From an uncultured Eubacteriales bacterium (GTDB lineage Bacteria; Bacillota; Clostridia; Peptostreptococcales; Anaerovoracaceae), in NCBI GenBank assembly GCA_902786355.1, contig CADABZ010000002.1:62001-126000 (forward strand): 64,000 nt of DNA, given 5' to 3'. Shown here piece by piece: positions 49,004 through 64,000 of this stretch (positions within the stretch are counted from its first letter, which is position 1; every line of letters starts with the position of its first letter). Made by a program: the position numbers and the translations under genes. The notes beneath the pieces were generated by a model that had not been told where the DNA came from, made no database searches, and saw only the letters and a program-made list of their open reading frames with translations.

Positions 49004-49102
49004 TAAGAGCAAGGGAGAGAAATTGCAATCTTCATAGAAAAAGCCAATAAATAACAGATACTATAAATTGTCATTCATCTCGAATAATATGCTGTTCATC
49101 AG

Positions 49103-49128
49103 AAAAGCTCCTGCAAAGGAGCTTTTTT
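49103..49128 (+). terminator. Rho-independent terminator at the end of the polysaccharide locus
   Basis: AAAAGCTCC (49103-49111), 6-base loop, GGAGCTTTT (49118-49126) with the T-run continuing to 49128. Perfect stem and T-run, 100 bases after the last transferase gene. Confidence 0.9.
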
Positions 49129-49152
49129 GTTATCTTTTGGAAAAAGAAGGCG

Positions 49153-49479
49153 TCACAGTTTCTTATTGGATCCGATAGTGTTTTTCAATTTCAGGAACTC
49201 AAGAATATCCTCTCTTAGATAGGAAGGTGCTTCGCGTAATTCATGAAGGAGTTCGATTTCATTATCAGAGAGCGCTGAATATTCAATCAGCGTGTTACCG
49301 ATTATATAGTCAACAGAAACGTTATAAAACGAAGAAAGCTGAATAAGAATATCTATGGATGGTTCCCGCTGACCGGTCTCATATCTTGAGTAAGTAGCAG
49401 GGGAGCAGCCAATCACATCAGCAATTTTTCGCTGTGACAAATTGTTCTTTTTTCGAAGTTCACGCAAACGCAATGTCAT
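49153..49479 (-). CDS. XRE-family helix-turn-helix regulator
   Basis: A 108-residue DNA-binding protein. The first 60 residues form a classic XRE domain: LRELRKKNNLSQRKIADVIG, then CSPATYSRYETGQREPS and LIQLSSFYNVSVDYIIG. The C-terminal 45 residues are acidic and helical, likely for dimerisation or ligand response. No ribosome site precedes the ATG at 49479, so it may be translated from a leaderless or weak start. It is divergent from the FHA-protease gene and the paired sites in the gap between them may be its operators (inference). The sequence around it is AT-rich. Confidence 0.88.
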   Translation of the reverse strand: MTLRLRELRKKNNLSQRKIADVIGCSPATYSRYETGQREPSIDILIQLSSFYNVSVDYIIGNTLIEYSALSDNEIELLHELREAPSYLREDILEFLKLKNTIGSNKKL

Positions 49480-49493
49480 GGTTAATGATTATT

Positions 49494-49526
49494 AAGCTCT
49501 ACACTTTGGGGGAGCAGAGCTTTTTT
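49494..49526 (+). terminator. Possible terminator upstream of the FHA-protease promoter
   Basis: AAGCTCT (49494-49500), 15-base loop, AGAGCTT (49516-49522) and a T-run to 49526. It points rightwards and could block read-through from the left into the signalling locus. The loop is long. Confidence 0.4.
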
Positions 49527-49601
49527 CGTTCTATATCTAGTCCAATACAAATTAAGCTGTGAAGCTATTTAATTCTAAAATAGGAACAAAGCGCTATATA
49601 C

Positions 49602-49652
49602 TACCGATTTGGCAGTTTTTGGCTTTACTGGCTACCGAATTGGTAATATAAT
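49602..49652 (+). promoter_or_regulatory. FHA-protease promoter with two operator-like sites
   Basis: TTTACT (49624-49629), 17-base spacer, perfect TATAAT (49647-49652). The site TACCGATTTGG (49602-49612) recurs as TACCGAATTGG (49633-49643), exactly 31 bases later, about three helical turns. The second copy lies inside the promoter spacer and forms the near-palindrome TACC-GAATT-GGTA. This is the layout of a repressor-controlled promoter; the divergent XRE protein is the obvious candidate. Confidence 0.55.
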
Positions 49653-49690
49653 ATTTCTAAATCTTGTGCCTTTAATGAAGGAGGAAAGAA

Positions 49691-51238
49691 ATGGAGAAGA
49701 ATAAGAGGTTTATGAGGCTGTTGGTGACGCTGATTGCCGCGTTTACGCTCATCGCCGGCACAGCAGTTACATCTTTTGCTGCAGAAGCTAACCAAAATGT
49801 AACAAATGATCGTAATGGTGTTGTTCAGGTAAAGGTCGTATTCCAAGGAAATGATGCAGATTATTTGGTACAGTGGGGATCTGGATTCCTTGTCAATGAC
49901 ATGACAGTTCTCACATGTCATCACGTAGTATATGTTGATGATGAAACGCTCCAGCTAATTAGAGAAGATGAGCATCTTGGCCCTATGGTTTCTGGAAAGA
50001 CAGATAAACAGATTCGGGACAAAATGGCGTTACAGGTTACTGTTTACTCTGACAGCAGTGTATCAGCAGAGGTTATAGAGGGCGTTAGCAGCCGTTCCGC
50101 TGATTTTGTAGCGTTGAAACTGAAAACTGCGCTTGTCGACTACTCTCCTCTCACAATAAGAGATACAAAAGATAATCCAGTAGTACCGACAGAAGCCTGT
50201 TATGTTTTAGGATTCCCGTATAAGATGATGTATCTGAAGGGAGATAATGCAAACAAGTTTGCCCCTGAAAATGTAGAGGTTACACCTGGAACGGTTAAGC
50301 AGATGGATACAAATAGTGATGGTTTTGTAAATATTACGATGACAGGAACCATCTCTAGTGGTTATTCGGGTGGCCCAATGGTGGATAATGATGGAAATGT
50401 AATCGGTATTGCAACAGGGAACGATGATAACCAGTCATTTGCTACAGGCTCACACGAATTTGTAGCTGTCCTTACTACAATAGGAATTGATTTTACAAAA
50501 GCCGATGGAGCTCCATCTGTAGATGAAGAGAAGAAAGAAGAAGCAAATGCTGAAGAAGAGGTTAAGGAAGAAGTTCCTGAGCCTGTACAGCCTGCAACTC
50601 CGGCAGAGCCAGAGAAGAAGACTAACTATGTTCCGTTCATTATCGGCGGCGCAGCAGTAGTTCTTCTCGGAATCCTTGCAGCAGTTCTTCTTTCACGCAA
50701 GAAGAAGAACGATGCACCAGAACCTGCCGGTGCAACATATGCTGCAGGCGGTCCTGTACCGGTTAATCCTGTTACAGGAACAGGAAGACCTGCAGGTGGA
50801 GCACCTGTAGTACCGCCAGCTGTCTCCGGAGGATATCCGGGAGGCCCTACACCTGATACAAGCGTTCTGAATCAGGGCTCTAATGAGACCACAGTTCTCG
50901 GACAGGGCGCAGGAGAGACTTCTGTACTGGCTGAGACACATATAATGGGTCATCTAATCAGAGAAAAGAACGGCGAGAAGATCAACATCACAAGAGAGAA
51001 CTTCAAGATAGGACGTGAACGCAGCAGAGTTGATTACTGCATCAGTGACAACACAGCTATCGGACGTCACCACGCAACTATCATCGTAAGAAATGATGAA
51101 GCATATCTTGTTGACCAGAACAGCCGCAACTTTACATTCGTAAACGACGTTAAGGTTGCGCCTAATGTAGAGACGAAACTGCAGGAAGGCGATAAGATCA
51201 GCTTCGCAGATGAAGTATATACATATCACGTAAGATAA
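49691..51238 (+). CDS. Transmembrane trypsin-like protease with C-terminal FHA domain
   Basis: A 515-residue membrane protein. A signal peptide (1-30, SFA-AE) leads to an extracellular chymotrypsin-fold protease (about 40-270) with His77/78 in TCHHVV, Asp138 in SADFVALK and Ser226 in GYSGGP. An acidic Pro-rich linker and a membrane helix (313-334, followed by RKKK) put the rest in the cytoplasm: a Gly/Pro-rich segment, three spaced motifs (TSVL 390, TTVL 400, TSVL 410), and an FHA domain (431-515) with IGRERS, IGRHHATI and DQNSRNFTFVN, the phospho-threonine pocket. GGAGG lies 6 bases before the ATG. The neighbours are a PP2C phosphatase and Ser/Thr kinases, so FHA binding is probably phosphorylation-controlled. 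Confidence 0.9.
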   Translation: MEKNKRFMRLLVTLIAAFTLIAGTAVTSFAAEANQNVTNDRNGVVQVKVVFQGNDADYLVQWGSGFLVNDMTVLTCHHVVYVDDETLQLIREDEHLGPMVSGKTDKQIRDKMALQVTVYSDSSVSAEVIEGVSSRSADFVALKLKTALVDYSPLTIRDTKDNPVVPTEACYVLGFPYKMMYLKGDNANKFAPENVEVTPGTVKQMDTNSDGFVNITMTGTISSGYSGGPMVDNDGNVIGIATGNDDNQSFATGSHEFVAVLTTIGIDFTKADGAPSVDEEKKEEANAEEEVKEEVPEPVQPATPAEPEKKTNYVPFIIGGAAVVLLGILAAVLLSRKKKNDAPEPAGATYAAGGPVPVNPVTGTGRPAGGAPVVPPAVSGGYPGGPTPDTSVLNQGSNETTVLGQGAGETSVLAETHIMGHLIREKNGEKINITRENFKIGRERSRVDYCISDNTAIGRHHATIIVRNDEAYLVDQNSRNFTFVNDVKVAPNVETKLQEGDKISFADEVYTYHVR

Positions 51239-51273
51239 AATGCTTTTTTCATAAGACCCTCACCCTTATGAAA

Positions 51274-51335
51274 CGCTGGTGCTGTACTGATGGAGCGCAG
51301 CACCAGCGCCTTATAACGTTATAAGGCTAGCTTTT
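51274..51335 (+). terminator. Tandem hairpins between the FHA-protease and PP2C genes
   Basis: A perfect 11-bp stem, CGCTGGTGCTG (51274-51284) and CAGCACCAGCG (51298-51308), is followed at once by a perfect 18-bp palindrome CCTTATAACGTTATAAGG (51309-51326). GCTAGCTTTTTAAT comes next, ending in five T. It could be a partial terminator that sets the protease-to-phosphatase ratio, or an RNA processing site. Confidence 0.55.
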
Positions 51336-51359
51336 TAATATGAATTGTCAGGAGATAAA

Positions 51360-52127
51360 ATGGAATTTCTTACAGCCAGTTATACCGATGTAGGAATAAG
51401 GAAAAAAACCAATCAGGATTCTATGATGATTCTTAGGGCGGAGAGCATCGGCCATAAGATACTCTTTGCATCGGTCTGTGATGGCATGGGAGGTCTTGCC
51501 AAAGGAGAACTGGCTAGTGCGACGATGGTGCGCGCGCTTGATGCATGGTTCCGGGAACGATTTCCGGTATTGCTGGCGAAAGGCTTTTCTCCGGATGATA
51601 TCTGGGACGAATGGGAAAAACTGATCGAGTTCACTAATCGGGCTATATCTAATTATGCCACAGATAACAGAACCAGTCTGGGAACGACGTGTACCGCGCT
51701 GCTTCTTCTGGACAACCTGTTTTACCTTATGAATGTCGGAGATTCCAGAATTTACAGACTCGCAGATAATATCTATCAGCTTACTAAAGATCAGACTGTT
51801 GTCCAGCGCGAAATAGATGCAGGAAGAATGACCTATGAACAGGCAATGGTCGATCCTGAAAGAAGCGTTCTGCTGCAGTGTATAGGTGCGACAGCAGACG
51901 TACATCCGGATTATATGTCAGGAGTTGCAAATCAGGGAGATGTATTCATGCTTTGCAGCGATGGATTCAGGCATAGAGTTGATGCAATGGAATTCTATCA
52001 GGTCTTTCATCCATCATTGATGTCTACAAAGCAGCTAATGGAGCAAAGACTTAAAGAGATGACAGATCTGAATATTCAGCGTGGAGAGGATGACAACATC
52101 AGCGCCATGCTGATCAAACTGCTGTAG
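51360..52127 (+). CDS. PP2C-type protein phosphatase (PrpC/Stp-like)
   Basis: A cytoplasmic Ser/Thr phosphatase of 255 residues. Motifs in order: GIRKKTNQDSM, CDGMGGLAKGE, GTTCTALLL, NVGDSRIYRL, TKDQT, LCSDGF and GEDDNISAML, with all metal-binding Asp positions present. The start is the ATG at 51360, with AGGAGA 4 bases upstream; a TTG at 51345 is in frame but has no ribosome site. It is followed 34 bases later by a Ser/Thr kinase, the usual Stp-Stk pairing. It probably removes phosphate from the kinases and from their targets encoded here. Confidence 0.93.
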   Translation: MEFLTASYTDVGIRKKTNQDSMMILRAESIGHKILFASVCDGMGGLAKGELASATMVRALDAWFRERFPVLLAKGFSPDDIWDEWEKLIEFTNRAISNYATDNRTSLGTTCTALLLLDNLFYLMNVGDSRIYRLADNIYQLTKDQTVVQREIDAGRMTYEQAMVDPERSVLLQCIGATADVHPDYMSGVANQGDVFMLCSDGFRHRVDAMEFYQVFHPSLMSTKQLMEQRLKEMTDLNIQRGEDDNISAMLIKLL

Positions 52128-52161
52128 TATCACATGCTCACAGCATCGAAAGGATACCTGT

Positions 52162-53961
52162 ATGCTAGAAATCGGTTCGGTTCTGGACGGCAAGTACAAA
52201 ATACTGAATGAAATAGGCCACGGCGGGATGAGCGTGGTCTACTTGGCTTTGAACGAAAGAGCTAATAAAACATGGGCAGTAAAAGAAGTCAGGAAAGACG
52301 GTGGAAACGACAATGAGGTTGTAAGTCAGGGATTGATCGCTGAGACTGAAATGCTCAAAAAGCTCAATCATCCCAATCTACCAAGCATTGTAGATGTAAT
52401 AGATACGAAAGACACGTTCATTATTGTAATGGACTACATTGAGGGGCGGAGCCTTCAGTCCGTGCTTAATCACACAGGCGCACAGGATCCGGAAAAGGTG
52501 CTTGAATGGTCTAAGCAGCTTTGCGATGTGCTTGGATATCTTCACAGCCGCCGTCCCGCAATCATATACAGAGACATGAAGCCTGCCAATGTCATGCTCC
52601 GACCGGATGGTCAGGTTGCACTTATAGATTTTGGTACGGCAAGAGAATACAAAGAACATAGCCAAGGAGATACAACATGGCTGGGCACTCGTGGCTATGC
52701 AGCACCTGAGCAATTTGGAGGAAGAGGACAGACTGACGCCAGAACGGATATCTATTGTCTTGGCGCGACTATGTATCACCTTCTTACAGGATACAGCCCT
52801 GCGGATACGCAATTTGTAATATATCCAATCGGACAGCTTGTTCCGTCTCTTGCCGGTAGTGGACTTGAAAAGGTTGTTGCGAAATGCTGTGAACCGGACC
52901 CTGCCAACAGATATCAGAGCTGCGCAGAACTGATGTATGCGCTTGAGCATGTCCATGACGAAGATGCTAAGGCTATAAATGAGCGTAATCGTAAATGGAG
53001 ACTGTTCGTAGCTAGCTGTGTTATCACTGCGATTGGTCTGGTCGGCATAATCGGCTTTGGCATTACAGGAATAGTTGCCGAGAACAAGACCTATGACAGC
53101 AAATATAAAGCAGCACAGACCATTGATGACAGCAAAGAAAAGCAGGAAAAATGTGCGGAATTGATGGACCTGAAACCAGAAAAAGCGGAAGCATATTCAT
53201 TAATGCTGTCTGCTATGGAGGAACCTGCGAGTGAAGCTGGAGAGAAGATCACTTCGTCAGAACATAAGATTCTGGAAGATGCTTTTGTAAAACATAAAGA
53301 GGATTTCAGAAAAGGCAACAGGAAGCAATATCTGGATTTCCAGTATCAAAGAGGGGTGGATTACTTCAGCTATTTCACTGGGAATAAGGCTGTAACGAAA
53401 GCAATCCTTGATGATATCAGCAATGATGAAAAGATAGACGACGAGGATTTCAGGAAAAAAGTATCAAAATGTCTGAGTGTTTTCTGCAGCATTTATATCC
53501 TTGAAAGCACTCCGGATAATGTTGAAACCGGAGGCACGAATTTGTCAGACCTCATGACTGATGATTCAGATAAAACGGGTAAGAATGACTATGCTGAGCT
53601 ATGGGAAAGCGTAGAAGGCATAGCGTCAGATCCTAAGAAAATAGATGAAATAACCGGAAGTCCGATTCTTTCAGCAATTCTTTACAGAGAAGCAGCAAAA
53701 CAGATAAGCAGTTATTCTGTTCTTTTCCAGAGCGGAGGAGTATCAAAAGAGAGCATGAGAGCACTGATGACCGCGGCCGAGCAATATGTTGATTCAGCAG
53801 ACCGAGGAGCAGACTCGAAGTATTCTGCCGCACTTGATGAAGCAGAAGAAGCTATAAGTGAAGCAATACTTCAGCTGAATCGAAAGAACACGAAAGACCC
53901 AGGCCTGGCTTCAGACCTGTCAGCAGAAGAGTCACAGCCGGATTCCGGAAGCACTGAATAA
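52162..53961 (+). CDS. Transmembrane Ser/Thr protein kinase 1
   Basis: A 599-residue bacterial Hanks-type kinase. The kinase domain spans 1-265: glycine loop GHGGMSVVY (19-27), ATP lysine Lys41 in AVKEV, catalytic loop YRDMKPAN (Asp138) with Tyr in place of the usual His, DFG at 157-159, GTRGYAAPEQ and DIYCLG. A membrane helix covers about 281-305. The extracellular 290 residues have no PASTA repeats and match nothing that I know; they are polar and helical, so the sensed ligand is unlike cell-wall fragments. It lies 34 bases after the phosphatase gene and 11 bases before the next. Confidence 0.93.
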   Translation: MLEIGSVLDGKYKILNEIGHGGMSVVYLALNERANKTWAVKEVRKDGGNDNEVVSQGLIAETEMLKKLNHPNLPSIVDVIDTKDTFIIVMDYIEGRSLQSVLNHTGAQDPEKVLEWSKQLCDVLGYLHSRRPAIIYRDMKPANVMLRPDGQVALIDFGTAREYKEHSQGDTTWLGTRGYAAPEQFGGRGQTDARTDIYCLGATMYHLLTGYSPADTQFVIYPIGQLVPSLAGSGLEKVVAKCCEPDPANRYQSCAELMYALEHVHDEDAKAINERNRKWRLFVASCVITAIGLVGIIGFGITGIVAENKTYDSKYKAAQTIDDSKEKQEKCAELMDLKPEKAEAYSLMLSAMEEPASEAGEKITSSEHKILEDAFVKHKEDFRKGNRKQYLDFQYQRGVDYFSYFTGNKAVTKAILDDISNDEKIDDEDFRKKVSKCLSVFCSIYILESTPDNVETGGTNLSDLMTDDSDKTGKNDYAELWESVEGIASDPKKIDEITGSPILSAILYREAAKQISSYSVLFQSGGVSKESMRALMTAAEQYVDSADRGADSKYSAALDEAEEAISEAILQLNRKNTKDPGLASDLSAEESQPDSGSTE

Positions 53962-53972
53962 GGAGGTCGATC

Positions 53973-54623
53973 ATGCAGATAGAAACTTTACTTCAGGTCG
54001 CCTCAATATGCTTCCGAGTCAGTATCGCACTCTTTCTGCTTGGAGCAGTCATCACGGTACTGCTTTACCGGAAGCTGAATATAAAAGAAATATATCTCAT
54101 ACGTTCCGGAAAAGCAAAGAGACGCCAGATCGGAGAGCTTGAACAGCATAATCGGGAAACCGGCAATCTCAGAGATTTTATTGATCTTGACTATACGACA
54201 GGCAGCCTCAAAAAACTAGTTAGAAAAAAAGAGCAAAAGACAGAGGCAACAGATCAGGACTCTCAATTCAAAAGAGAAATTCACAGCGGCAATACCGGTG
54301 TATTCAGCACACCATCAGGAGAGATTAGTGCGCCGAGCAGAGGCCAGGATGATAAAGTATCCGGCAGCTCATTCATCGCACTTACGGGTGATAAGCCGGC
54401 AACAGAACCAGCTGAAGGCAGTCCATCCCCGGTATCAGACGAAGGAGAGACTGTTAAGCTGTCAGATATGATTTCCGCAGACTATAACGCGCGTATCAAT
54501 ACAGCGTATCAGCAAGGGAATACAGGAGATATAGCGGCCCCTGCACCAGCAGAACCAATGGTACCTGTAAACATTATTTCTGCTGAACTCATCATTCATA
54601 CCAATGAAGTCATAGCGATATGA
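53973..54623 (+). CDS. Single-pass membrane protein with long polar tail, unknown
   Basis: I do not recognise this 216-residue protein. One membrane helix covers about 11-33 and is followed by a basic stretch (RSGKAKRRQ), which puts the tail in the cytoplasm. The tail is low-complexity and rich in Ser, Thr, Glu and Pro. It contains NTGVFS, EGETVKLSDMIS and NTGDIA, the kind of exposed Thr next to acidic residues that Hanks kinases modify and FHA domains bind, so it may be a substrate or adaptor (inference). AAGGAGG lies just before the ATG. Its stop is 71 bases before the giant surface protein. Confidence 0.7.
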   Translation: MQIETLLQVASICFRVSIALFLLGAVITVLLYRKLNIKEIYLIRSGKAKRRQIGELEQHNRETGNLRDFIDLDYTTGSLKKLVRKKEQKTEATDQDSQFKREIHSGNTGVFSTPSGEISAPSRGQDDKVSGSSFIALTGDKPATEPAEGSPSPVSDEGETVKLSDMISADYNARINTAYQQGNTGDIAAPAPAEPMVPVNIISAELIIHTNEVIAI

Positions 54624-54694
54624 CACCCCCGAAAAGGGATATAAGGAAATTTTATTTATCAGAGGTAATCAATTATTACCAGAAGGAGAAAGCG

Positions 54695-57600
54695 ATGAAC
54701 AAGAAGAAAGGCAACACCAGCCGGATCCTTGCTATTCTGTGTGCATTAGCTATGATAGTGACCGCATTTCCAGCAGGTCTCTGGGCCGGCGGAGCTTATG
54801 CAGCAGACGAAAATGCATCGGTTGCAGCAGAGGCAGAGCCCGCTGCAGGAGAAAACGAGGCAGAAGAGCCTGGTGGAGCAGATCAGGCCGAACCACAGGA
54901 ACAGGCATCTCAGCCTGAGAATGACCAGCCTTCAGTAGAAGGTGAATCTAAGGCAGAAGAAAAGCCGGTAGTCCAGGAGACAGAACCTGAAAAAGAGATC
55001 ACTGAACCTGCTGAAAATGCTGAGGTCGATAAGGAAGAGGCCAAAGCAGAGGAAAAAGCAGAGACAGAAGAACCTGATGCAAAGGAAGACACTGCAGAGG
55101 AAGATGTCTTTAAGGTCAGATTCGATTTCGCGGAGAACTATGCGAACTTCAATCAGATAAATGATGAAACCACAGAACCAGGTGGCAAATTTACTCTGCC
55201 GAAAAAGCCTGAAGCCAGAAAAACTCTGTACAAAGCGGGCGACGGCAAGGAATACTACTTCACAGGCTGGAAATATGATGGTGAAGAGTATGAGCCAGGC
55301 GATGCTGTAGTTCTTGATTCTGATACTGTATTCAAGGCTGTATGGAAACAGACATATACAATTGAATTCAGTACTAAAGGAATCGTAGCTGATGAGGTCG
55401 AGTCTCAGACAGAAGTGTATGGAGAACCGGTTGTACTTCCGGACGAAACCGCCAAGAAGGCCGGATATGATTTTATCGGATGGACACCGGACAAAGGTGA
55501 AACCGTATTTGCACCTGGCACATCTATCGCAGCCAGCAGAATACAGCCATCAAGGTCAAAGGCGCAGATGAGACTTCTTGGTGTCACAGAAGACACTTCC
55601 AGGCCAGATGTGTATATTGAGATCGAAGAACACTTTCCGAATGAGGAAGACCCAATAATGGGCTATGCGACATTTAAAGTTACAGCATTCGACAAAGGCT
55701 CAGGAGTCGATAAAGTAGAAATAACAAATAATGATACTGGTGACACGGGCTGGCAAGAGATCAGTAACGGGGAAGTAGTAAAGGGTTATTATAATCGGTT
55801 CCTACATGCAAGAGCTTTTGACAAAGCAGGTAATAAAAGTGAACCAACGTTTGTCATTGTAACAACAGGAATGCAAAAGCATTCAGCTGCTGAGTTTACT
55901 GATATCAAAGTAGATGGGAAAGAAGCAATAGCACAAGACGGAGAAATAGATGCATCAAATGTTGCAAAGAAGGAACACACGATAGGCTTCTCCCTAAGCA
56001 AAGAGGTGTCTGCATTAAGGGCTTATATAGATGATAAAGAGATAACTGGTGATATCGCTGGAGATTATGCCAGTGGATATACTCTTAACTTGTCAGGAGA
56101 TGATCTGAACGGGGAAAAAACTGTCTCGATAGTAGCGAGGTCAACCTTCACACATTCAGATCTGGCAATAAAACTTGCCTTTGATAATGCGAAACCATCT
56201 GTCAAGTCATTCTCGATGAAGGGTGGTAATAGTTTCGGTTATTACAACGCATCTGGAGACTGGACTCTGGAAGCTGAGGCTGATAAAGAACTTGCTTCCG
56301 CAGAATTCAATATCGGAGGAGAGAAGTTCCCGGGAAAAGTAGAAGGCAAGAAGGCCAGCGCAACTATTACTAAGGAAGAAGTAGAGGAAAAGTTCAAAGG
56401 GGCAGAGGGCGAATATGAAATCTCTGTTGCTGCAAAAGACACAGCAGATAATGAAAACGAAGAAGATGATCAGAAGCTCGCAAACGTTGAGGCTCCTGAA
56501 GGGTTGTATTCAGACAACAAGATCATCATAGACACTGTTGCACCAAAACTTACAAAGGTTGAAACTACTCCATCAAGTTTACTAGATCCTAAAGATAATA
56601 ATTATTATTATCAGAAAGCTGCGTCAACTACATACACTATCAAAGATAGTTATCCTGATACGATGAACCTCAGCTACAAGAAAGATGGCGAGTCGACAGA
56701 TCCAATAGTTGAAAAAGAAAAGAATACTATAACAGCTGATTGGAAAGGGGATTTCACATATAGTGATATTACTCTCACAGCTACAGATAAAGCAGGAAAT
56801 CTTCTTGAAAATGGCTCTACGCCGAGCACTGAGGACACAGTAACTGTCGAAAATGGTATAGCCGCATTTACTTATGGAAAAGTAATAGATACTAAGGCAC
56901 CGCAGGTAACAGTTAACTATGATTCCAATGCTAAACTTTATGTATATGAAGATGGCGTATTTGTAAATGATACCGTATCGTTTAAGCTCAGTATAGAGAA
57001 GGACGATAACCTTGACAAAGATGCAGTCAGCGTCAAACTGCTTAAAGATGGAGTAATCGATCCAAAAACTACCATTGCGATTGATACAGCAGAAGATGGA
57101 AAGCTGGAGGCAGAGGGAGTCATCTGTCTAAAGGATAGTGAAGGACTGAATGATGGTGAGTATTGCCTGCAGATAACAGGAACAGACAGAGCTGGACATG
57201 CTGTACAGATCACTGAAGTAAAACCTGAAAATGCAAAGATCATGAGTGGAAAATGGCCAGATGCAAAAGAAGATAATATCAATGTCAAATTCGTTCTGGA
57301 CAATACAGCACCGAAGTACACATCTTCAGACTTCTCTGAGGTTTCAGAAGGCGCGTCCCCTGATGGCAACACTGCATATTATCAGAATGCAGTATCAGGA
57401 AAGTTCACTATTAATGAAAACAACTTCGCTGAGAATAGAATAATAGCAGGTTACACAAAGGCAGATGGCAAACAGTACAGTAAAGTAGAACTAAAATGGC
57501 CAGATAAACCTAGTGCCACTGGAAAATGCAAAGGCAAAACATATACTGTTGAAACCCCTGATGAAGCAGGTGTATACAGACTGCTTATTACGGGAGAAGA

Positions 57601-60337
57601 TAAAGCCGGAAACCTTCTTGAAAAGGAAAAAGATGATACATCGGATATTTACAACGAAACAGAACAGAATGCTGATGGACAATTCTGGTCATTCAATAAG
57701 GTCGTAGATAAAGATGATCCTGGCTATATTCTGAGCATTTCTGATACTCAGGGTGAATATTACAGAAAGATAGTAGATGTAAGAGATAAGGATGCTGCAG
57801 GAGAGGAAAAATACAAGCCTTTCAGAAAGAACAGAACAGCAAGCATCGTAGTAAAAGGAGATGACGCTTCTCCAGTAAAAGTCAGCTATGACATTCTTGC
57901 AATTGACAGTAATGGCAAGGCCGGAGAATGGAAAAAGGTCAATGACATACCTTATACTGCTGATTACGCCGACAATCTTTCTGTACCATCAGAAAAATCA
58001 GGAGAAACGCAGTTTAAAGTTGCTAATATCACTGTCATGGACAGATCCGGGCGTAAGGTGGAACTGGGAATGAGCAACCCGGTTTATCTGGACGGAACGA
58101 GGCCTGTTAATGATATTATTCAGCCGATTGCAAAGATAAAATCAACTACTGCTATCACCAAGAGAGTACAGAATAAAGATCTTTACAATAAGTCAGTTAA
58201 TCTTTCGTTTGAAGTGTCAGACCCTAACGAGAACAAATCCAGTTCCGGGTTAGCAAAAGTCTGGTATGAAGCATACATCGATGGAACTGTCGTAGATAAA
58301 GGCGAACTTGATGGTACAGATGGATATTTCCTCAATTTAAGTGAATCTGAAGCAGAGCAGGCAGCCAAAGAGGATAAATTAACTTATAAGAAGAATGCAG
58401 CAATAACTATTCCTGCAAAGAGCAAGTATGAATCAAACAACATCAGAATTGTTCTGCATGCGATAGACAATGCAGGGAACGAAACTAGTACCAGCACCGT
58501 TTTCGGTATAGATTCTGTTGGCCCAGAGATTGTCATTAGCTATGATAATAATTCGGTTAAGAACGAAAAGTATTTTAAAGCGAACAGAACTGCGACGGTA
58601 ACCGTTACAGAAAGAAACCTCGGAACATATAGCAAAAAAGTGAATATAAAGACAGAGGTTGGTGTTCCAGGCAGTTGGTCTTACTCTGAAGGAGGAAGTG
58701 CCAGCGGAAACAATGATAAATGGATAAAACGCCTGTATTACACAAAAGATGGTACATACAACATGACTGTATCAGGCACCGACGCACTTGGAAATCCGGC
58801 ACATGTAACTTATACAGGAACTGCGAACAGACACTTTGTTATTGACAAAACGGCTCCGCTTCTTGCGGTTTACTTTGACAATAACAGTGTCCGCAATGGC
58901 AAGTACTACAATGCGGACAGAGTAGCTACGATCGATATCAGAGAGCTGAATTTCAGAGATTCCGATGTCACTATCAAAGGCAAGGCTACCGCTCCTAGGG
59001 GTGGTGCTATGGGATTCCCGTCACGCAGCGGATTCTCATCGAGTGGTATCAACAGATTTGCAACGATCCCGTTTGTCAGGGAAGGACGTTTCAACTTTGA
59101 TGTTGATTTCGTCGATCTTGCAGGCAATAAGGCTAAGACCGTTTCGATCAGCGAGTTTGTAATCGACAAAACAAAGCCTACTGTCAGAATCGAGAATGTC
59201 ATCGACGGTGGCATCTATCGCAACTCGGTAGCACCGAGGGCGGTATTTGATGATGATAATTTCAGCCTTGGCGATAGCTCGTTCCGATTCACAGGAGTCA
59301 GAAAGATAGATAGATCAGAGCTTGTGTCTGCCTTCAGATCCAATGGAGAATATGGCGGAGTATATATACTCAATGATATCCCTCAGATAAGGGCTAATGA
59401 TGATATCTACACCGCATATGCAACATCAACTGATATGGCCGGAAATACAACAACTGTACAGGTAATATTCAGTGTCAACAGATTTGGATCGACATACGAC
59501 TACAACAATGATAAAACCACAGAGAATCTTGTAGCTAAGAAAACAGGCCGCTTCTACACTAACAAAGCCGAAGATCTTCAGCTGAGAGAAATCAACGTCA
59601 ATCATATCAAGAATTACAGTCTGACTCTCGACAGAGGCGGAAACAGTGTCAAGCTGAAGGAAGGAAAAGATTATACTGTTACTAAGAAAGAATCCGAACA
59701 GGGTGTTCAGTATATCTATAAGATAAGCAAGGACGTTGTCACCGATGAAGGCAGCTATAATATCGTAGCCAAGTCTGAGGATGAGGCCGGAAATATCAAT
59801 ACTAATGCGGCAATCAGATCCGAAAACAAGGACAGCGAAGTGCCTGTAAGATTCGTATACGATGTAACCAAGCCGGTGATCAATGTTGTTGACCCAGGAA
59901 ACAACAAGGTCATAGAGCTGAAGAAATCACCATACTATGGTATATCTGCTCTTGACATAGGTATCAAACCGGATGATGATTGGGCACTTGGCGGAAAGAT
60001 CAAGCTTATACTCAGAGACGGTGAGAACGAGTATGTTGAGGAGTACAGCGGTAAAGAATTCTGGGAGATCATGGGAGAGAACAGTGACAAGAAGTTCTTC
60101 CCTGAGACGATCAAAAGCGGAAGCAGGACGAAGACTCTTGATGTAACCGTATGGGATGCTGCCGGTAATGAAGAGACCGCTCATTACGATATCACAGTAC
60201 TGAATGGCGTAGGAGATGTAGCAAGACGTTACTGGTATCTCCTGCTGCTCCTCCTTGGAGTTGCAGCTGGCGGATACGCTTACTACAGACATCGCAAAAA
60301 CGATGACGATGATGAGAAAGAGGACGACGCTGCATGA
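54695..60337 (+). CDS. Giant Ig-repeat surface protein with C-terminal membrane anchor
   Basis: An 1,880-residue exported protein. The start is the ATG at 54695 after AAGGAGA. The signal peptide ends near residue 38 (AYA-AD). A Glu/Ala-rich acidic region of about 110 residues and two InlB B-repeat-like units (YYFTGWKYDGEEY; AGYDFIGWTPDKG) follow. Seven or more Ig-like modules come next, most introduced by a variant of IDKTAPxxxV: DTVAPKLTKV, DTKAPQVTV, DNTAPKY, DSVGPEIVI, DKTAPLLAV, DKTKPTVRI and DVTKPVINV. The C-terminus is one membrane helix (YWYLLLLLLGVAAGGYAYY) and an Asp/Glu-rich cytoplasmic tail; no LPxTG. Likely an adhesin or a scaffold, and possibly a target of the adjacent protease (inference). 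Confidence 0.88.
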   Translation: MNKKKGNTSRILAILCALAMIVTAFPAGLWAGGAYAADENASVAAEAEPAAGENEAEEPGGADQAEPQEQASQPENDQPSVEGESKAEEKPVVQETEPEKEITEPAENAEVDKEEAKAEEKAETEEPDAKEDTAEEDVFKVRFDFAENYANFNQINDETTEPGGKFTLPKKPEARKTLYKAGDGKEYYFTGWKYDGEEYEPGDAVVLDSDTVFKAVWKQTYTIEFSTKGIVADEVESQTEVYGEPVVLPDETAKKAGYDFIGWTPDKGETVFAPGTSIAASRIQPSRSKAQMRLLGVTEDTSRPDVYIEIEEHFPNEEDPIMGYATFKVTAFDKGSGVDKVEITNNDTGDTGWQEISNGEVVKGYYNRFLHARAFDKAGNKSEPTFVIVTTGMQKHSAAEFTDIKVDGKEAIAQDGEIDASNVAKKEHTIGFSLSKEVSALRAYIDDKEITGDIAGDYASGYTLNLSGDDLNGEKTVSIVARSTFTHSDLAIKLAFDNAKPSVKSFSMKGGNSFGYYNASGDWTLEAEADKELASAEFNIGGEKFPGKVEGKKASATITKEEVEEKFKGAEGEYEISVAAKDTADNENEEDDQKLANVEAPEGLYSDNKIIIDTVAPKLTKVETTPSSLLDPKDNNYYYQKAASTTYTIKDSYPDTMNLSYKKDGESTDPIVEKEKNTITADWKGDFTYSDITLTATDKAGNLLENGSTPSTEDTVTVENGIAAFTYGKVIDTKAPQVTVNYDSNAKLYVYEDGVFVNDTVSFKLSIEKDDNLDKDAVSVKLLKDGVIDPKTTIAIDTAEDGKLEAEGVICLKDSEGLNDGEYCLQITGTDRAGHAVQITEVKPENAKIMSGKWPDAKEDNINVKFVLDNTAPKYTSSDFSEVSEGASPDGNTAYYQNAVSGKFTINENNFAENRIIAGYTKADGKQYSKVELKWPDKPSATGKCKGKTYTVETPDEAGVYRLLITGEDKAGNLLEKEKDDTSDIYNETEQNADGQFWSFNKVVDKDDPGYILSISDTQGEYYRKIVDVRDKDAAGEEKYKPFRKNRTASIVVKGDDASPVKVSYDILAIDSNGKAGEWKKVNDIPYTADYADNLSVPSEKSGETQFKVANITVMDRSGRKVELGMSNPVYLDGTRPVNDIIQPIAKIKSTTAITKRVQNKDLYNKSVNLSFEVSDPNENKSSSGLAKVWYEAYIDGTVVDKGELDGTDGYFLNLSESEAEQAAKEDKLTYKKNAAITIPAKSKYESNNIRIVLHAIDNAGNETSTSTVFGIDSVGPEIVISYDNNSVKNEKYFKANRTATVTVTERNLGTYSKKVNIKTEVGVPGSWSYSEGGSASGNNDKWIKRLYYTKDGTYNMTVSGTDALGNPAHVTYTGTANRHFVIDKTAPLLAVYFDNNSVRNGKYYNADRVATIDIRELNFRDSDVTIKGKATAPRGGAMGFPSRSGFSSSGINRFATIPFVREGRFNFDVDFVDLAGNKAKTVSISEFVIDKTKPTVRIENVIDGGIYRNSVAPRAVFDDDNFSLGDSSFRFTGVRKIDRSELVSAFRSNGEYGGVYILNDIPQIRANDDIYTAYATSTDMAGNTTTVQVIFSVNRFGSTYDYNNDKTTENLVAKKTGRFYTNKAEDLQLREINVNHIKNYSLTLDRGGNSVKLKEGKDYTVTKKESEQGVQYIYKISKDVVTDEGSYNIVAKSEDEAGNINTNAAIRSENKDSEVPVRFVYDVTKPVINVVDPGNNKVIELKKSPYYGISALDIGIKPDDDWALGGKIKLILRDGENEYVEEYSGKEFWEIMGENSDKKFFPETIKSGSRTKTLDVTVWDAAGNEETAHYDITVLNGVGDVARRYWYLLLLLLGVAAGGYAYYRHRKNDDDDEKEDDAA

Positions 60338-60376
60338 CCATGACCTGTGATATCTCAATGGCTCAATAGAACGCAC

Positions 60377-60410
60377 AGAGAGGTGCCGCCTTAACCGGCA
60401 GCACCTCTCT
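60377..60410 (+). terminator. Hairpin after the giant surface protein gene
   Basis: A perfect 10-bp stem, AGAGAGGTGC (60377-60386) and GCACCTCTCT (60401-60410), with a partly paired inner loop. It starts 40 bases after the stop. Only TTC follows, so a terminator function is probable but not certain. Confidence 0.55.
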
Positions 60411-60452
60411 TCGTATACGCAAAAAAAGTTAGACCAGGAAAGCAAAACAACA

Positions 60453-62330
60453 ATGCTGCGGGCAGGAAATATCATTAGCGGAACATACCAGATAGTCCAG
60501 GAAATAGGCCATGGCGGAACAGGCGTGGTCTATTTGGCTTACCACATCAATCTGCAGAAGTACATAGTTCTTAAACGCGTTACAAAGCAGATACATAGCA
60601 TGGAGGCTCTGAGACGAGAAGCAGATATTCTGAAAAATCTGCGGCATACTAATATACCCCAGATATATGACTTTGTTATAGAGAACGGGGAAGTATTCAC
60701 TGTGATGGATTATATCGAGGGGGAGTCTCTTGATAAATACATCGGAGGATCCAACTTCCACTCTGAGGAACAGCTTTTGAAGTGGTTTAGAGAGCTGACA
60801 GATGTTCTTGTATATCTTGGCAGCAGGAAGCCGGCAATAATACACAGCGACATCAAGCCCGAAAACATAATCATCACACCACAGGGGTCGCCTGTACTTA
60901 TTGACTTCAATATTTCTCTGGGTCAGGACGACTCTTCAAGACTGGCTGGTATCAGCAGAAACTACGCATCTCCGGAACAAGGATACATCTTCGAAGAAAT
61001 AGGCAAAGGCCGCACTCCAACTATATCATTAGATGTGCGTACAGATATATACAGTCTTGGAGCGGTATTCTATACCCTCATTACAGGGATAGTTCCAGAC
61101 TGCAGATACGTTTTAAGCAAGCTCTCATCTATGCAGGGTCTGATTTATTCCTCTGCATTCAAGGCAGTAATAGATAAGTGTATAGAATGGGATCGCGAAA
61201 AGAGATTTAAAAATGCCGCCAGGCTTTCATCTGCAGTAACGAATCTGTACAGAATGGACAGAAACTATCGTAAGTATGCCGCCCTCAGGGTTGCGAGCTG
61301 GATAATCAGCGCCGGAGTTTTTGCCTCGGGATGCTTTTGTGTTCTTCACGGAATGCAGATCAATAACAGCGTGAAGGTACAGGAATTGTACAGTAATGCA
61401 GTTGCAGCTACTAGTGAAGGAGATTTCGGAACGTCAGGAGAAATAGCAGAGGAAATCGTAAGTCACAGAGTTTTATACAGTCAACTCGATACAGAAAAAA
61501 AGGCTGAAATATACCATGCACTTGCGGATTCTGAGTATGTATCAGGCAACTACAATGATGCTGCCGAAAATTACAGAAAAGCGCTGGAGATCCTCGAAGG
61601 AACGGAAAATAGCAGGACATCTTCGTACAGATCAGATCTGGCATTGGCATATCTGAGGAACGGAGATCTGTCCGCAATAAAAGCGCTGAATGCAGAATAT
61701 GAGAATGACGGACCTGAGGATGATAATATGCGGCTGATTAAGGCGGCTGCTTTGAAGCAAAGCGGCGATAATGAAGGATGCAAGAAGATTGCTGACAGCA
61801 TTATCAATGAAGCAGATGATCAGGAGATAAGAGCTAAAGCTTGTGTCATTGCTGCACAATGCTGCAGCCCGGATCAACTGACAGACAAACTTCGGTATAT
61901 GCGGCAGGTAACTGAGTACAGCGGTGAACTGCGATATGTAAGGGAATGTGCTGCTCTTGAATATGAATGTGCCGGACGACCGGGAATAACTGAGTTTGAA
62001 AGAAAAGCGGGTGCAGAGAAAGCTGCAGCATTATATGAAAAGATTTGCAGTTTTCCATCTGCACAGAGCACAGACAGGATAAACCTCGGAATCTCATACT
62101 ATTATGCAGGAGATTATGACAAATCCCTTGAAAAGCTGACTGAGGCAGCAGGTTATAGCAATGATTACAGGATCCGTATGTATCAGGCTCTTGCTGCTGA
62201 GAAAACGGGAGATAAAAACAGTGCAAGGAATTACTGTGCTGATGCGATAAATGAATGCAGAAAAGAGAAGAGACAGGGATGGGAAGATGATTATCAGATA
62301 CTTCAGGAACTGTCGGGACGGTTGTACTAG
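60453..62330 (+). CDS. Transmembrane Ser/Thr protein kinase 2 with TPR region
   Basis: A 625-residue Hanks-type kinase. The glycine loop is GHGGTGVVY, the ATP lysine is Lys41 (IVLKRV), the catalytic loop reads HSDIKPEN (Asp133, with Ser instead of Arg) and the metal motif is DFN (151-153) instead of DFG. NYASPEQGYI and DIYSLGAVFY complete the domain. Lack of the HRD Arg usually means no activation-loop phosphorylation is needed. A membrane helix (about 279-300) leads to a C-terminal TPR-like region (EIYHALADSEYVSGNYNDAAENY; YYYAGDYDKSLEKL). AGGAAAG precedes the ATG. It shares little beyond the core with kinase 1, so it probably has other partners. Confidence 0.9.
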   Translation: MLRAGNIISGTYQIVQEIGHGGTGVVYLAYHINLQKYIVLKRVTKQIHSMEALRREADILKNLRHTNIPQIYDFVIENGEVFTVMDYIEGESLDKYIGGSNFHSEEQLLKWFRELTDVLVYLGSRKPAIIHSDIKPENIIITPQGSPVLIDFNISLGQDDSSRLAGISRNYASPEQGYIFEEIGKGRTPTISLDVRTDIYSLGAVFYTLITGIVPDCRYVLSKLSSMQGLIYSSAFKAVIDKCIEWDREKRFKNAARLSSAVTNLYRMDRNYRKYAALRVASWIISAGVFASGCFCVLHGMQINNSVKVQELYSNAVAATSEGDFGTSGEIAEEIVSHRVLYSQLDTEKKAEIYHALADSEYVSGNYNDAAENYRKALEILEGTENSRTSSYRSDLALAYLRNGDLSAIKALNAEYENDGPEDDNMRLIKAAALKQSGDNEGCKKIADSIINEADDQEIRAKACVIAAQCCSPDQLTDKLRYMRQVTEYSGELRYVRECAALEYECAGRPGITEFERKAGAEKAAALYEKICSFPSAQSTDRINLGISYYYAGDYDKSLEKLTEAAGYSNDYRIRMYQALAAEKTGDKNSARNYCADAINECRKEKRQGWEDDYQILQELSGRLY

Positions 62331-62342
62331 AAGGAGAAAGGA

Positions 62343-62468
62343 ATGGAATCAGGCACGATATGGATAATAACCGGAGTCGTACTTATGATAGCAGGAACCG
62401 GATTCTTTGCTGTAACGCACACGGCGATTACCAGATGGATCCGCAGCTTTGAAAGACTGCACGAATAG
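62343..62468 (+). CDS. 41-residue single-pass membrane peptide
   Basis: A short gene between kinase 2 and the TPR/DUF2135 protein. AAGGAGAAAGGA sits directly upstream of the ATG, 12 bases after the kinase stop, and the next gene starts 17 bases after its TAG. Residues 6-25 form one hydrophobic helix (IWIITGVVLMIAGTGFF), followed by a charged amphipathic end (TRWIRSFERLHE). Good ribosome site and tight packing argue that it is real. It may regulate or stabilise a membrane partner such as the kinase. I know no family for it. Confidence 0.65.
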   Translation: MESGTIWIITGVVLMIAGTGFFAVTHTAITRWIRSFERLHE

Positions 62469-62485
62469 AGAAGGAGGGCGGCACT

Positions 62486-63958
62486 ATGAGTAAGAAGTAC
62501 AAAATAGTAATGCTGGCAGGTGCAATTGTGGCTGTGATGTTGATAGTTGCAGCAATTGTAATAGGTATGCATAACCAGGCTATGGCTGCATACAGTGCTA
62601 AGCTGGATGAAGCTGATAAGATGCTGGCAGCAGAGGATTATTCAAATGCTGTCCTGAAGTATCAGGAGGCAATATCAGATCAGCCTGAAGAGGAAGAAGG
62701 CTATCTGAGACTTGCTGTAGCTTATGAAGTATCCGGCAATCCTGATTATGCGAAAACCACTATACAAAATGCACTGACGATTCTGCCTGGCAATGAAAGA
62801 CTTACAGAAAAACTCAGTCAGATGGAAGGTGACAACATAAAAACTAATGCTCTTGCATTAGACAATTCACTGCTTACAACTCTATCTTCCAAGAGCTTTT
62901 ATGATTATGGAAAGACAAATGGAGTTGAGAAAGTCACTGTTATAAAAGATGGCGCAATTGCGGTAAGAATCAAAGGCGTGAATGCAGATCTTATTTTCCG
63001 CAACACCAGTGAGCAGCCTAACGCAGTTTCAGGGAACGGGCCTAATCCGGACAGCCTGCCTGCTGAGGTTCACTTCGATAACATTCTAGCAGTTTTCGGT
63101 GGCGTTTCAAGTATGACGATAGATGACCTGAAGGATCTTGGCGTAAAGGATGCAAAAGTTGTCAGTCATCAGGATTACGGGAAGGCTGTCACATTTACAC
63201 ATGAACTGTACAGCTTCACTATAGAATGTGATGAGGAAGGAACGGTCCGGGAAGGTGCTGCTAATTCTGTATTAATACCAACGCCATCCGTAAAGGCCGG
63301 AGGTAATGTAGAGATAAAAGGAGTAGCGATCAATGCTGTTACAGGTGATGGCATAGATAATGCGAAACTTACTTTCGTCAAAGGGAGTGACAAGTATGAA
63401 GTATCGACCGACTCCAGCGGACATTTCCAGGCCAAGCTGGGCGCAGGAGATTATACCGTAGAGTGTCGTGCCGAGGGCTTTATAGAGGAGAATAAAAACG
63501 TCTATGTCCCATCATATTCCAATAACTGGACCTGTGAGATAGTAATGTCTCCGGAAATAAATGCGAAGGAAGCGAGATTTGTTCTTACATGGGATTCGGC
63601 ACCTGCCGATCTTGACTCGCATCTTGTAGGCAACGGAGTCCACACTTCGTGGCTGCATATGGAAGAAGGAGATATAGCCTCTCTTGACCTTGACGATACT
63701 AATGGTTATGGCCCGGAGACGACGACTTTGTACGACTTGAACGGGCATTATACGTTCGTTGTTCATAACTACAGTCAGGATGCACCGCTTGCTGACTGTG
63801 GTGCAGAGGTTACGGTATATCTGCCTGGAGAGGAACCGGTAACTATCTCTATCGGAGGCGATGGCGCCGCAGATACGTGGGTCGTCTGTGAGATCGATAA
63901 CGGAAAACTGAATGTCATTAATGAGATTCAGGATTATGGCCTTGATTTGATAATGTAG
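62486..63958 (+). CDS. Membrane-anchored TPR protein with carboxypeptidase-regulatory-like and DUF2135-like domains
   Basis: A 490-residue protein anchored by an N-terminal helix (about 7-28) with the rest outside. Residues 35-115 carry two or three TPR-like units (YSNAVLKYQEAISDQPEEEEGYLRLA). A middle part of about 150 residues has no family that I know. A carboxypeptidase-regulatory-like beta domain follows (EIKGVAINAVTGDGIDNA, YTVECRAEGF). The last 120 residues read FVLTWDSAPADLDSHLVG and GHYTFVVHNYSQDA, like the YfaP/DUF2135 family. GGAGGGC precedes the ATG. TPRs here and in kinase 2 suggest that the two interact outside the cell (inference). Confidence 0.82.
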   Translation: MSKKYKIVMLAGAIVAVMLIVAAIVIGMHNQAMAAYSAKLDEADKMLAAEDYSNAVLKYQEAISDQPEEEEGYLRLAVAYEVSGNPDYAKTTIQNALTILPGNERLTEKLSQMEGDNIKTNALALDNSLLTTLSSKSFYDYGKTNGVEKVTVIKDGAIAVRIKGVNADLIFRNTSEQPNAVSGNGPNPDSLPAEVHFDNILAVFGGVSSMTIDDLKDLGVKDAKVVSHQDYGKAVTFTHELYSFTIECDEEGTVREGAANSVLIPTPSVKAGGNVEIKGVAINAVTGDGIDNAKLTFVKGSDKYEVSTDSSGHFQAKLGAGDYTVECRAEGFIEENKNVYVPSYSNNWTCEIVMSPEINAKEARFVLTWDSAPADLDSHLVGNGVHTSWLHMEEGDIASLDLDDTNGYGPETTTLYDLNGHYTFVVHNYSQDAPLADCGAEVTVYLPGEEPVTISIGGDGAADTWVVCEIDNGKLNVINEIQDYGLDLIM

Positions 63959-64000
63959 TTAATTCATACGGAATGTGGAAATATATAGTAACAGTTTTTT

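What the first reader, a model, noticed from the sequence alone, without database searches (positions are those of the whole stretch)
49691..63958. Candidate undescribed phospho-threonine system controlling surface proteins
Seen: one run of same-strand genes encodes a transmembrane protease with cytoplasmic FHA domain (reader), a PP2C phosphatase (eraser), two transmembrane Hanks kinases (writers), a single-pass protein with a Thr-rich tail, a 1,880-residue membrane-anchored Ig-repeat protein, a 41-residue membrane peptide and an exported TPR/DUF2135 protein. Known: FHA domains bind phospho-Thr; PP2C-kinase pairs are standard. Inference: kinase signalling inside the cell gates an extracellular protease or the display of the giant protein. 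No EssC, WXG100 or PASTA kinase is present, so it is neither a type VII secretion locus nor the normal Stk/Stp pair.
Basis: partly seen in the sequence, partly recalled or inferred. Interest (0 to 1): 0.82.

Follow-up and report, generated by a model that had tools for sequence, protein, structure and literature searches.

The report
Phospho-regulated type VII secretion gene cluster
The gene run is the front half of a bacterial protein-secretion machine (type VII) from a gut Clostridia relative; its core genes start just past the window's edge, and it carries an unusual membrane protease that appears to be wired to phosphorylation signals inside the cell.

Summary
The genes are as described, but ruling out type VII secretion (T7SS) is a window-edge artefact. 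EssC starts 501 bases past the window end (TIGR03928, 1057.8 bits; cut-off 778.4), followed by LytTR, YukD-like, FHA and five WXG100-type genes. Ten loci found elsewhere carry the protease-FHA gene with its neighbours: 7 keep the whole order to EssC, one lacks two genes, two run off their contigs. Kinase, PP2C, TsxH-like and giant Ig protein match published T7SSd/e/j (PMC11217815). Not described in the text I read: an FHA-tethered trypsin-like protease (triad in 11 of 11) and a TPR/transthyretin-like protein. A gene before YukD models like the EspG chaperone, reported for T7SSa/b/c/h/i only. The protease's cytoplasmic linker carries 2-3 T-[ST]-[VIL]-L repeats in 11 of 11, resembling the GarA/OdhI phospho-switch motif. 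Against: one triad-intact protease-FHA (G222) has no motif and no EssC within 40 kb; 15 of 17 relatives in other T7SS loci lost triad residues; several FHA pockets are degenerate. Verdict: new variant of a known kind, probably a phospho-threonine-regulated T7SS; no function was shown experimentally.

The parts
49691..51238 (+). Type I membrane protein: signal peptide, trypsin-like protease (aa 63-240), TM (aa 316-335), cytoplasmic linker, FHA domain (aa 439-505)
   Evidence: Pfam PF13365 1.8e-19, PF00498 9.6e-15; triad H78/D138/S226 kept in 11 of 11; TM and linker positions; signal peptide by eye
50855..50929 (+). Three D/E-T-S/T-V-L repeats, 10 residues apart, between TM and FHA (candidate phospho-acceptor motifs)
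   Evidence: 0 of 2000 linker shuffles reach the observed count; rare outside this family and the TsxH-like family
51345..52127 (+). PP2C phosphatase (TsxF-like); likely ATG start at 51360
   Evidence: PF13672 1.2e-11; Stp1/IreP model 2.6e-48, 164.6 bits, below its cut-off of 230
52162..53961 (+). Transmembrane Hanks kinase 1 (TsxD-like), catalytic residues present
   Evidence: PF00069 9.5e-48; Lys, catalytic Asp (YRD for HRD), Asn and DFG kept in 11 of 11
53973..54623 (+). Single-pass protein, long Thr-rich cytoplasmic tail, C-terminal IHTxE-type motif (TsxH-like)
54620..60337 (+). Giant Ig-repeat protein (TsxI-like), signal peptide, C-terminal TM; likely start 54695 (1880 aa)
   Evidence: PF19077 8e-19; homologues of 1451-3139 aa at the same place in 8 other loci
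60453..62330 (+). Transmembrane Hanks kinase 2 with TPR outer domain; DFN in place of DFG
   Evidence: PF00069 3.7e-34 and TPR hits; 8 of 8 DFN
62343..62468 (+). 41-aa single-TM peptide (TsxK-like by size and topology only)
   Evidence: homologues of 39-51 aa in 4 other loci
62486..63958 (+). TM-anchored TPR protein with CarboxypepD_reg/transthyretin-like and C-terminal beta domains
   Evidence: model pLDDT 83; Foldseek hits include carboxypeptidase transthyretin-like domains
63973..64000 (+). Start of TM-FHA protein (169 aa; continues past the window to position 64482), followed 18 bases later by EssC (64501-69195)

Best explanation
This is the membrane-component and signalling half of a chromosomal type VII secretion locus. 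Shown by sequence: a recurrent run of protease-FHA, PP2C, kinase 1, TsxH-like, giant Ig protein, kinase 2, small TM peptide, TPR protein, FHA, EssC, LytTR protein, a protein of EspG-like predicted fold, YukD-like, FHA and WXG100-type proteins; in the window's genome a DUF4176 protein follows. Inferred: EssC exports WXG100/LXG-type substrates brought by the EspG-like chaperone. The giant Ig protein spans the thick wall as EsaA does in T7SSb, and the kinases stand in for the EssB pseudokinase. Kinase 1 (perhaps kinase 2) phosphorylates the T-[ST]-V-L repeats in the protease's cytoplasmic linker and, in several relatives, Thr motifs in the TsxH tail. FHA domains (own or neighbouring) bind the phosphorylated tails, which recruits or switches the outer protease at the machine; PP2C resets it. 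The protease would act on envelope subunits or exported proteins, a role like that of mycosin in T7SSa but from a different protease family.
For: T7SS: EssC 1057.8 bits over its cut-off, WXG100 hits; EssC matches that of a complete T7SSb plasmid locus at 3.7e-179; DUF4176 1.2e-27; EspG-like fold of the L116 homologue (first 12 PDB matches all EspG, best E 4.4e-4). Unit: of 39 neighbourhoods annotated (30, 9), 10 carry the protease-FHA gene with PP2C, kinase 1 and TsxH-like after it; 7 of the 10 keep the order to EssC, 1 lacks two genes, 2 end at contig ends. The 9 were picked for that gene (9 of 12 genomes searched). Genome-wide, 4 of 5 FHA domains and 2 of 3 Hanks kinases lie in this locus; the other FHA is an FtsW/RodA fusion, the other kinase a PASTA kinase. 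pThr switch: linker motif in 11 of 11; with the stricter pattern 26 copies in the 13 proteins of the protease-FHA set, 10 in TsxH-like proteins, 1 in the other 21 families together; the GarA/OdhI ETTS motif lies in an unstructured stretch next to FHA, which binds it when phosphorylated (passages of PMC5448819 and PMC8546545). Motif and triad go together in part: of 29 trypsin-FHA proteins, 14 have the triad (12 with the strict motif) and 15 do not (1 with it).
Against: No phosphorylation, secretion or proteolysis is shown. G222 has a triad-intact trypsin-FHA protein (27% identity) beside PP2C and kinase genes with no linker motif and no EssC in the 40 kb read. With a looser T-x-[VIL]-[LI] pattern, 6 of the 15 triad-broken proteins also match, so the motif/triad link depends on the pattern; rows are related, too. 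15 of 17 trypsin-FHA proteins in the other T7SS loci lost triad residues, so proteolysis is not needed by every related system. The protease's FHA has Gly at the usual pThr-contacting Ser in 6 of 11, the window's included; the window's EssC FHA has Ser for the usual Arg and its 169-aa FHA also departs (canonical residues recalled); only the 185-aa FHA looks canonical. The window's own TsxH tail has no copy of either motif. The YukD-like label is weak: no Pfam hit, E 0.12 to a T7SSb EsaB, best PDB match a ubiquilin at E 0.011.
Confidence: 0.6

Rival explanations
1. T7SS locus in which the kinases and FHA domains are only structural (as EssB pseudokinase with EssC FHA in T7SSb): contacts do not depend on phosphate, and the protease is a scaffold.
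For: In B. subtilis the YukC-YukB FHA contact is held to be phosphorylation independent (passages of PMC9600267). The triad is lost in 15 of 17 trypsin-FHA proteins of other T7SS loci. Several FHA pockets are degenerate.
Against: Kinase 1 keeps its catalytic residues in 11 of 11 and a PP2C sits beside it. Protease triad 11 of 11 in window-type loci. Linker motifs conserved.
Confidence: 0.25
2. One reading: a stand-alone phospho-threonine system for surface proteins, merely next to a T7SS.
For: G222 has a trypsin-FHA protein with PP2C and kinase genes and no EssC in the 40 kb read; G248 has a DUF6382-FHA protein with PP2C and kinase, likewise without EssC. Such modules can stand alone.
Against: The order runs into EssC in 7 of 10 loci that carry the window-type genes; only 14 and 18 bases separate TPR protein, FHA and EssC in the window's genome. 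G222 lacks the linker motif.
Confidence: 0.08
3. An anti-phage defence system (kinase-based).
For: PADLOC kinase models (PD-T4-6, mad6) match the kinases, and RT-Protease and LmuA models match the protease domain.
Against: These look like generic kinase/protease domain hits; EssC, WXG100 and the EspG-like protein define a secretion locus.
Confidence: 0.03

Closest known systems
T7SSe / T7SSd (Garrett, Higginson and Palmer 2024, PMC11217815)
   Same: EssC with N-terminal FHA, WXG100 proteins, YukD-like protein (T7SSe), TM kinase, PPM phosphatase (T7SSe), TsxH (single TM plus tail), TsxI (signal peptide, Ig domains, C-terminal TM), small TM protein like TseK
   Different: Here a trypsin-FHA protease, a second kinase, a TPR/transthyretin-like protein, a LytTR gene and an EspG-like protein; no DUF6382-FHA (TseJ) hit in the window's locus. 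Word search of the main text: 'trypsin' 0, 'DUF2135' 0, 'LytTR' 0, 'protease' 2, both mycosin
T7SSj (same paper)
   Same: Kinase with TPR outer domain, PPM phosphatase, Ig giant, FHA protein; found in Clostridia
   Different: T7SSj has no TsxH and one kinase as described; here TsxH-like and two kinases
T7SSi (same paper)
   Same: A LytR-like regulator (TsiN) and an EspG-like chaperone at the locus
   Different: Described as Vallitalea only, sharing almost all parts with T7SSh (which has the kinase-like TshM); no TsxI in the text read
T7SSb (Ess/Yuk)
   Same: EssC over the T7SSb model's cut-off; WXG100; DUF4176 (link to T7SS recalled)
   Different: No EsaA, EssA or EssB match in the locus (best E 0.053) and no EssB family hit over cut-off in the genome
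T7SSa with mycosin protease
   Same: A membrane-anchored outer serine protease and an EspG-type chaperone accompany the ATPase
   Different: Mycosin is subtilisin-like (recalled); here trypsin-like with a cytoplasmic FHA tail
GarA/OdhI phospho-switch
   Same: Thr motif (ETTSVF against ETSVL) in an unstructured stretch N-terminal to an FHA domain
   Different: Here 2-3 copies, mostly 10 residues apart, on a transmembrane protease

Membership tests
Type VII secretion system (general) | FtsK-type EssC/EccC ATPase plus WXG100 protein | tested here: met
   TIGR03928 1057.8 bits over cut-off; WXG100 PF06013 over cut-off for two genes
T7SSb | EsaA, EssA, EssB | tested here: not met
   No significant match by phmmer to one complete T7SSb set (its EssA is my assignment of a gene annotated as hypothetical); EssB family best E 0.063 in the genome, below cut-off. 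EsaA and EssA were not sought outside the locus
T7SSe | TM kinase, PPM phosphatase, TsxH, TsxI, TsxB, two TsxA | tested here: inconclusive
   Met by architecture and order, but not by homology to a named T7SSe sequence; TsxB label weak
T7SSe | TseJ with DUF6382 and FHA | tested here: not met
   The locus's FHA proteins show no DUF6382 hit; one relative of the same layout, L192/G473, has a weak DUF6382-FHA protein (24.2 bits, cut-off 26.7)
T7SSe | EssC falls in the TseC clade | not tested
   No named TseC/TsdC/TsjC sequence was obtained; the tree has one T7SSb outgroup
T7SSj | No TsxH; kinase with TPR | tested here: not met
   TsxH-like protein present; kinase 2 has TPR
EspG/EsaE chaperone fold (TsxG) | EspG fold | tested here: met
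   Model of the L116 homologue (pLDDT 77.7) finds 12 EspG chains first, TM 0.35-0.40 by query length, only one with E <= 0.001; the window genome's own copy (172 aa) was not modelled
GarA-like FHA switch | Phosphorylated Thr motif bound by FHA | not testable with these tools
   Motif present; phosphorylation and binding need experiments

The most novel reading that the evidence does not exclude
A T7SS subtype with an inside-out protease switch: cytoplasmic kinase signalling phosphorylates tandem GarA-like motifs on the tail of a transmembrane protease, FHA binding transmits this across the membrane, and the outer trypsin domain then licenses the machine (or its giant wall-spanning subunit) for export; many sister loci lost motif and catalysis and kept the FHA pseudo-protease as a scaffold.
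Probability: 0.28. Interest if true: 0.78.

Novelty: new variant of a known kind. Interest (0 to 1): 0.52.

Why it matters
The paper that describes T7SSc-j raises phospho-threonine control as a possibility (Discussion). This locus names the parts for a test: a kinase, a phosphatase, exact Thr motifs and an FHA-tethered protease in one gene run. It also adds a protease and an EspG-like protein to a branch for which I found none reported, and the wider EssC clade is frequent among Lachnospiraceae in the 80 loci read.

Tried and rejected
Relative search with the protease protein in genome contigs: 134 pattern matches, none a relative; the EssC alignment worked. IMG/VR viral contigs: none of 115 pattern matches was a relative. 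Protease protein in 393 genomes of the order: 71 with a match, most through the FHA domain alone. I read 23 of those: only G400 has the window layout; G441 has EssC and a trypsin-FHA protein elsewhere; G352 has EssC with an FHA-only match; G222 has a trypsin-FHA protein without EssC. In the other proteins listed a regular expression finds no GxSGG; the one tested by Pfam, G248, is DUF6382-FHA. Of the 12 genomes, G475, G476 and G477 matched through FHA only and were not read. The 7 EssC neighbourhoods read do not show the window layout. Horizontal spread: GC is 0.41-0.46 over about 49-76 kb against 0.47-0.52 beside it, and the locus is patchy in the genus; none of 3 downstream proteins occurs in the 15 kb read downstream in G400, whose upstream side was hardly read (1.6 kb), so this is not shown. 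Defence reading weighed with PADLOC. A subtype tree with named TseC/TsjC references could not be built. Publication searches for a T7SS with an FHA protease: (open-access library only); I judged from listings, and opened PMC11217815 (abstract, text parts 2-4 of 7, Discussion, word search), PMC9600267 (passages) and PMC13059805 (abstract and outline). One search served the GarA papers, of which passages were seen.
Full report
WHAT IS THERE. The window is G000:C2:62001-126000 of a 2.50-Mb assembly. A genome of the same genus that has the whole locus, G400, is the record JAFWFU010000053.1, Mogibacterium sp. RGIG5700 from sheep duodenum (L119); NCBI places Mogibacterium in Anaerovoracaceae.

The window stops inside the gene run. 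A TM-FHA gene begins 28 bases before the window end, and EssC (1564 aa) begins 501 bases after it. EssC scores 1057.8 bits with the T7SS EssC model (cut-off 778.4). Then come a LytTR protein, a 172-aa protein, an 82-aa YukD-like protein, a second TM-FHA protein, a 114-aa protein, five WXG100-type small proteins (two over the Pfam WXG100 cut-off, two below it, one with only a weak PPE hit), a 315-aa protein with no Pfam hit (LXG-like by position only), a DUF4176 protein (1.2e-27) and a 573-aa exported protein. 'No EssC or WXG100' is a border effect. The YukD-like label is weak: no Pfam hit at E 0.1, E 0.12 against a T7SSb EsaB, and ubiquilins as best PDB matches (E 0.011).

ONE RECURRENT UNIT. 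I annotated 39 neighbourhoods: 30 (23 drawn by the protease protein, 7 by EssC) and 9 (picked from the 12 genomes because the protease match covered more than the FHA domain). Ten carry protease-FHA followed by PP2C, kinase 1 and a TsxH-like gene: G400 and the nine. In 7 of these 10 (G400, G470, G472, G473, G469, G466, G468) the order protease-FHA, PP2C, kinase 1, TsxH-like, Ig giant, kinase 2, TPR protein, EssC is kept; G472's contig ends inside EssC and its giant reads as two ORFs, G473 has one extra kinase, and small FHA genes vary. G474 lacks kinase 2 and the TPR protein and its TsxH-like gene is placed by position and sequence ends only. G471 and G467 keep the first four genes and then the contig ends. 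The other neighbourhoods do not show this layout. Of 172 EssC relatives in GTDB genomes the best 80 were kept. Within 10 kb kinase 2 and the TPR protein lie next to FHA/EssC in L116, L118, L119, L129, L146, L154, L189, L190 and L192 (genomes of nine of the ten loci; the tenth, G474, is L147), with looser matches in L142 and L152; many others keep EssC, LytTR, YukD-like and the WXG100 set with other kinase/FHA genes. In the EssC tree (88 rows, quick method) the window's EssC joins L119 and then L116/L117/L129 with SH-aLRT 100; window-type loci need 6 changes and sit on deep branches, so the layout may be old there. Some rows have long branches, and contigs too short to judge (L117, L132) count as 'other'. 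In 47 genomes of the window's genus, its own included, 2 have the TPR protein, and EssC over the cut-off is found in 8 of 197 family genomes, its own included, so the locus is patchy.

SIGNALLING PARTS. Of 5 FHA domains in the genome, 4 are in this locus and one is an FtsW/RodA fusion; of 3 Hanks kinases, 2 are here and one is a PASTA kinase. Kinase 1 keeps Lys, catalytic Asp (YRD for HRD), Asn and DFG in 11 of 11; kinase 2 has DFN for DFG in 8 of 8 but keeps Lys, HxD and Asn. The protease keeps His/Asp/Ser in 11 of 11. Between its TM and FHA domains all 11 have 2-3 T-[ST]-[VIL]-[LI] motifs, spaced 10 residues in 10 of 11 and 13 in G474; none of 2000 shuffles of each linker reached the count. 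With the pattern [EDGA]T[TS][VL][LI] there are 26 copies in the 13 proteins grouped with the protease (two of them not proteases), 10 in TsxH-like proteins (4 of 10 proteins) and 1 in the other 21 families together; in the 80 loci it is rare (3 copies in 30 protease-FHA-like proteins, 1 in the single TsxH, 5 in all others); background is 1 copy in 32 ORFs of the window. The motif resembles ETTSVF of GarA/OdhI, a kinase site in an unstructured stretch next to an FHA domain that binds it (passages of PMC5448819 and PMC8546545). Against a simple reading, the window's TsxH tail has none, and several FHA pockets, including the protease's and EssC's, miss a canonical residue (canonical set recalled).

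A NATURAL CONTRAST. Among the 80 loci 17 hold a trypsin-FHA protein within the DNA held. Only L130 and L149 keep the whole triad; 15 of 17 do not (Ser lost in 14, His in 13, Asp in 4). Adding the 11 and G222 gives 29: 14 with the triad, 12 of them with the strict linker motif (not L130, not G222); 15 without, 1 of them (L168) with it. With a looser T-x-[VIL]-[LI] pattern it is 13 of 14 against 6 of 15. This suggests that the motif serves the active protease, but the rows are related and the count is not a test. G222 is the clearest counter-example to a fixed tie with T7SS: triad intact, beside PP2C and kinase genes, no motif, and no EssC in the 40 kb read.

NEW SMALL COMPONENT. Of 52 candidate ORFs taken from the place just before YukD, an iterated profile puts 51 into one family; the miss is an overlapping ORF in L155. 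Two loci are in the set twice (G469/L146, G474/L147), and the profile was run only on those candidates, so drift is possible. In Pfam, 40 members scanned give five single-member hits between E 0.022 and 0.046, one of them DUF5081. An AlphaFold2 model of the L116 member (40 rows, pLDDT 77.7) has EspG chaperones as its first 12 PDB matches, best E 4.4e-4, TM about 0.35-0.40. EspG-like TsxG was reported for T7SSa/b/c/h/i, not d/e/f/j, in the text that I read.

COMPARISON. PMC11217815 was read in abstract, text parts 2-4 of 7 and Discussion, plus a word search of the main text; figures, tables and supplements were not seen. It describes TsdH/TsdI, kinase, phosphatase and TseK with the anatomy found here, a LytR-like TsiN in T7SSi, and raises phospho-control as a possibility. 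'Trypsin', 'DUF2135' and 'LytTR' do not occur in its main text. The locus is therefore a T7SSe/T7SSj-like system with extra parts. Whether it is a branch of T7SSe or a new letter needs the paper's EssC accessions. T7SSb is disfavoured by the lack of EsaA/EssA/EssB matches in the locus.

CONFIDENCE. T7SS locus: about 0.97. Protease, two kinases and TPR protein belong to it: about 0.88. Phosphate-dependent control through the linker motifs: about 0.58. Protease gating export: about 0.28.

Noticed in passing
L007:11722-13021 (G000:C2:135721-137020): A 315-aa protein and a DUF4176 protein follow the WXG100 genes; they look like a T7SS substrate with its partner, but the 315-aa protein has no Pfam hit.
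   Followed up: partly
L007:13301-15022: A 573-aa exported protein with repeats and a C-terminal domain that looks NlpC/CHAP-like by eye only (no such Pfam hit); could be a dedicated wall hydrolase as EssH is for T7SSb (abstract of PMC13059805).
   Followed up: no
window 49000-64000 on to about position 76000: GC content is about 0.41-0.46 over the locus against 0.47-0.52 on both sides; with its patchy presence in the genus it may be a horizontally acquired island.
   Followed up: partly
L121, L128, L151, L157, L158, L165, L168, L169, L171, L175, L176, L178, L180, L181, L182: Trypsin-FHA proteins with lost catalytic residues (pseudo-proteases) in T7SS loci of other layouts, mostly downstream of the WXG100 genes.
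   Followed up: partly
G222 (L078/L079) and G248 (L080:2264-5652): FHA proteins (trypsin-FHA in G222, DUF6382-FHA in G248) beside PP2C and kinase genes with no EssC within the 40 kb read: free-standing relatives of T7SS signalling parts.
   Followed up: partly
window 53973-54623 and homologues: TsxH-like proteins end in a conserved hydrophobic motif around HTxE (HA for HT in G471; 11 sequences), a possible docking site.
   Followed up: partly
L224 (NZ_CP019033.1): A T7SSb set (EsaA, EsaB, EssB, EssC, WXG100) sits on a mobilizable 29-kb plasmid of Limosilactobacillus fermentum.
   Followed up: no
L003:187-1914 (G000:C20): FHA domain fused to an FtsW/RodA cell-shape protein, the only other FHA found in the genome.
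   Followed up: no
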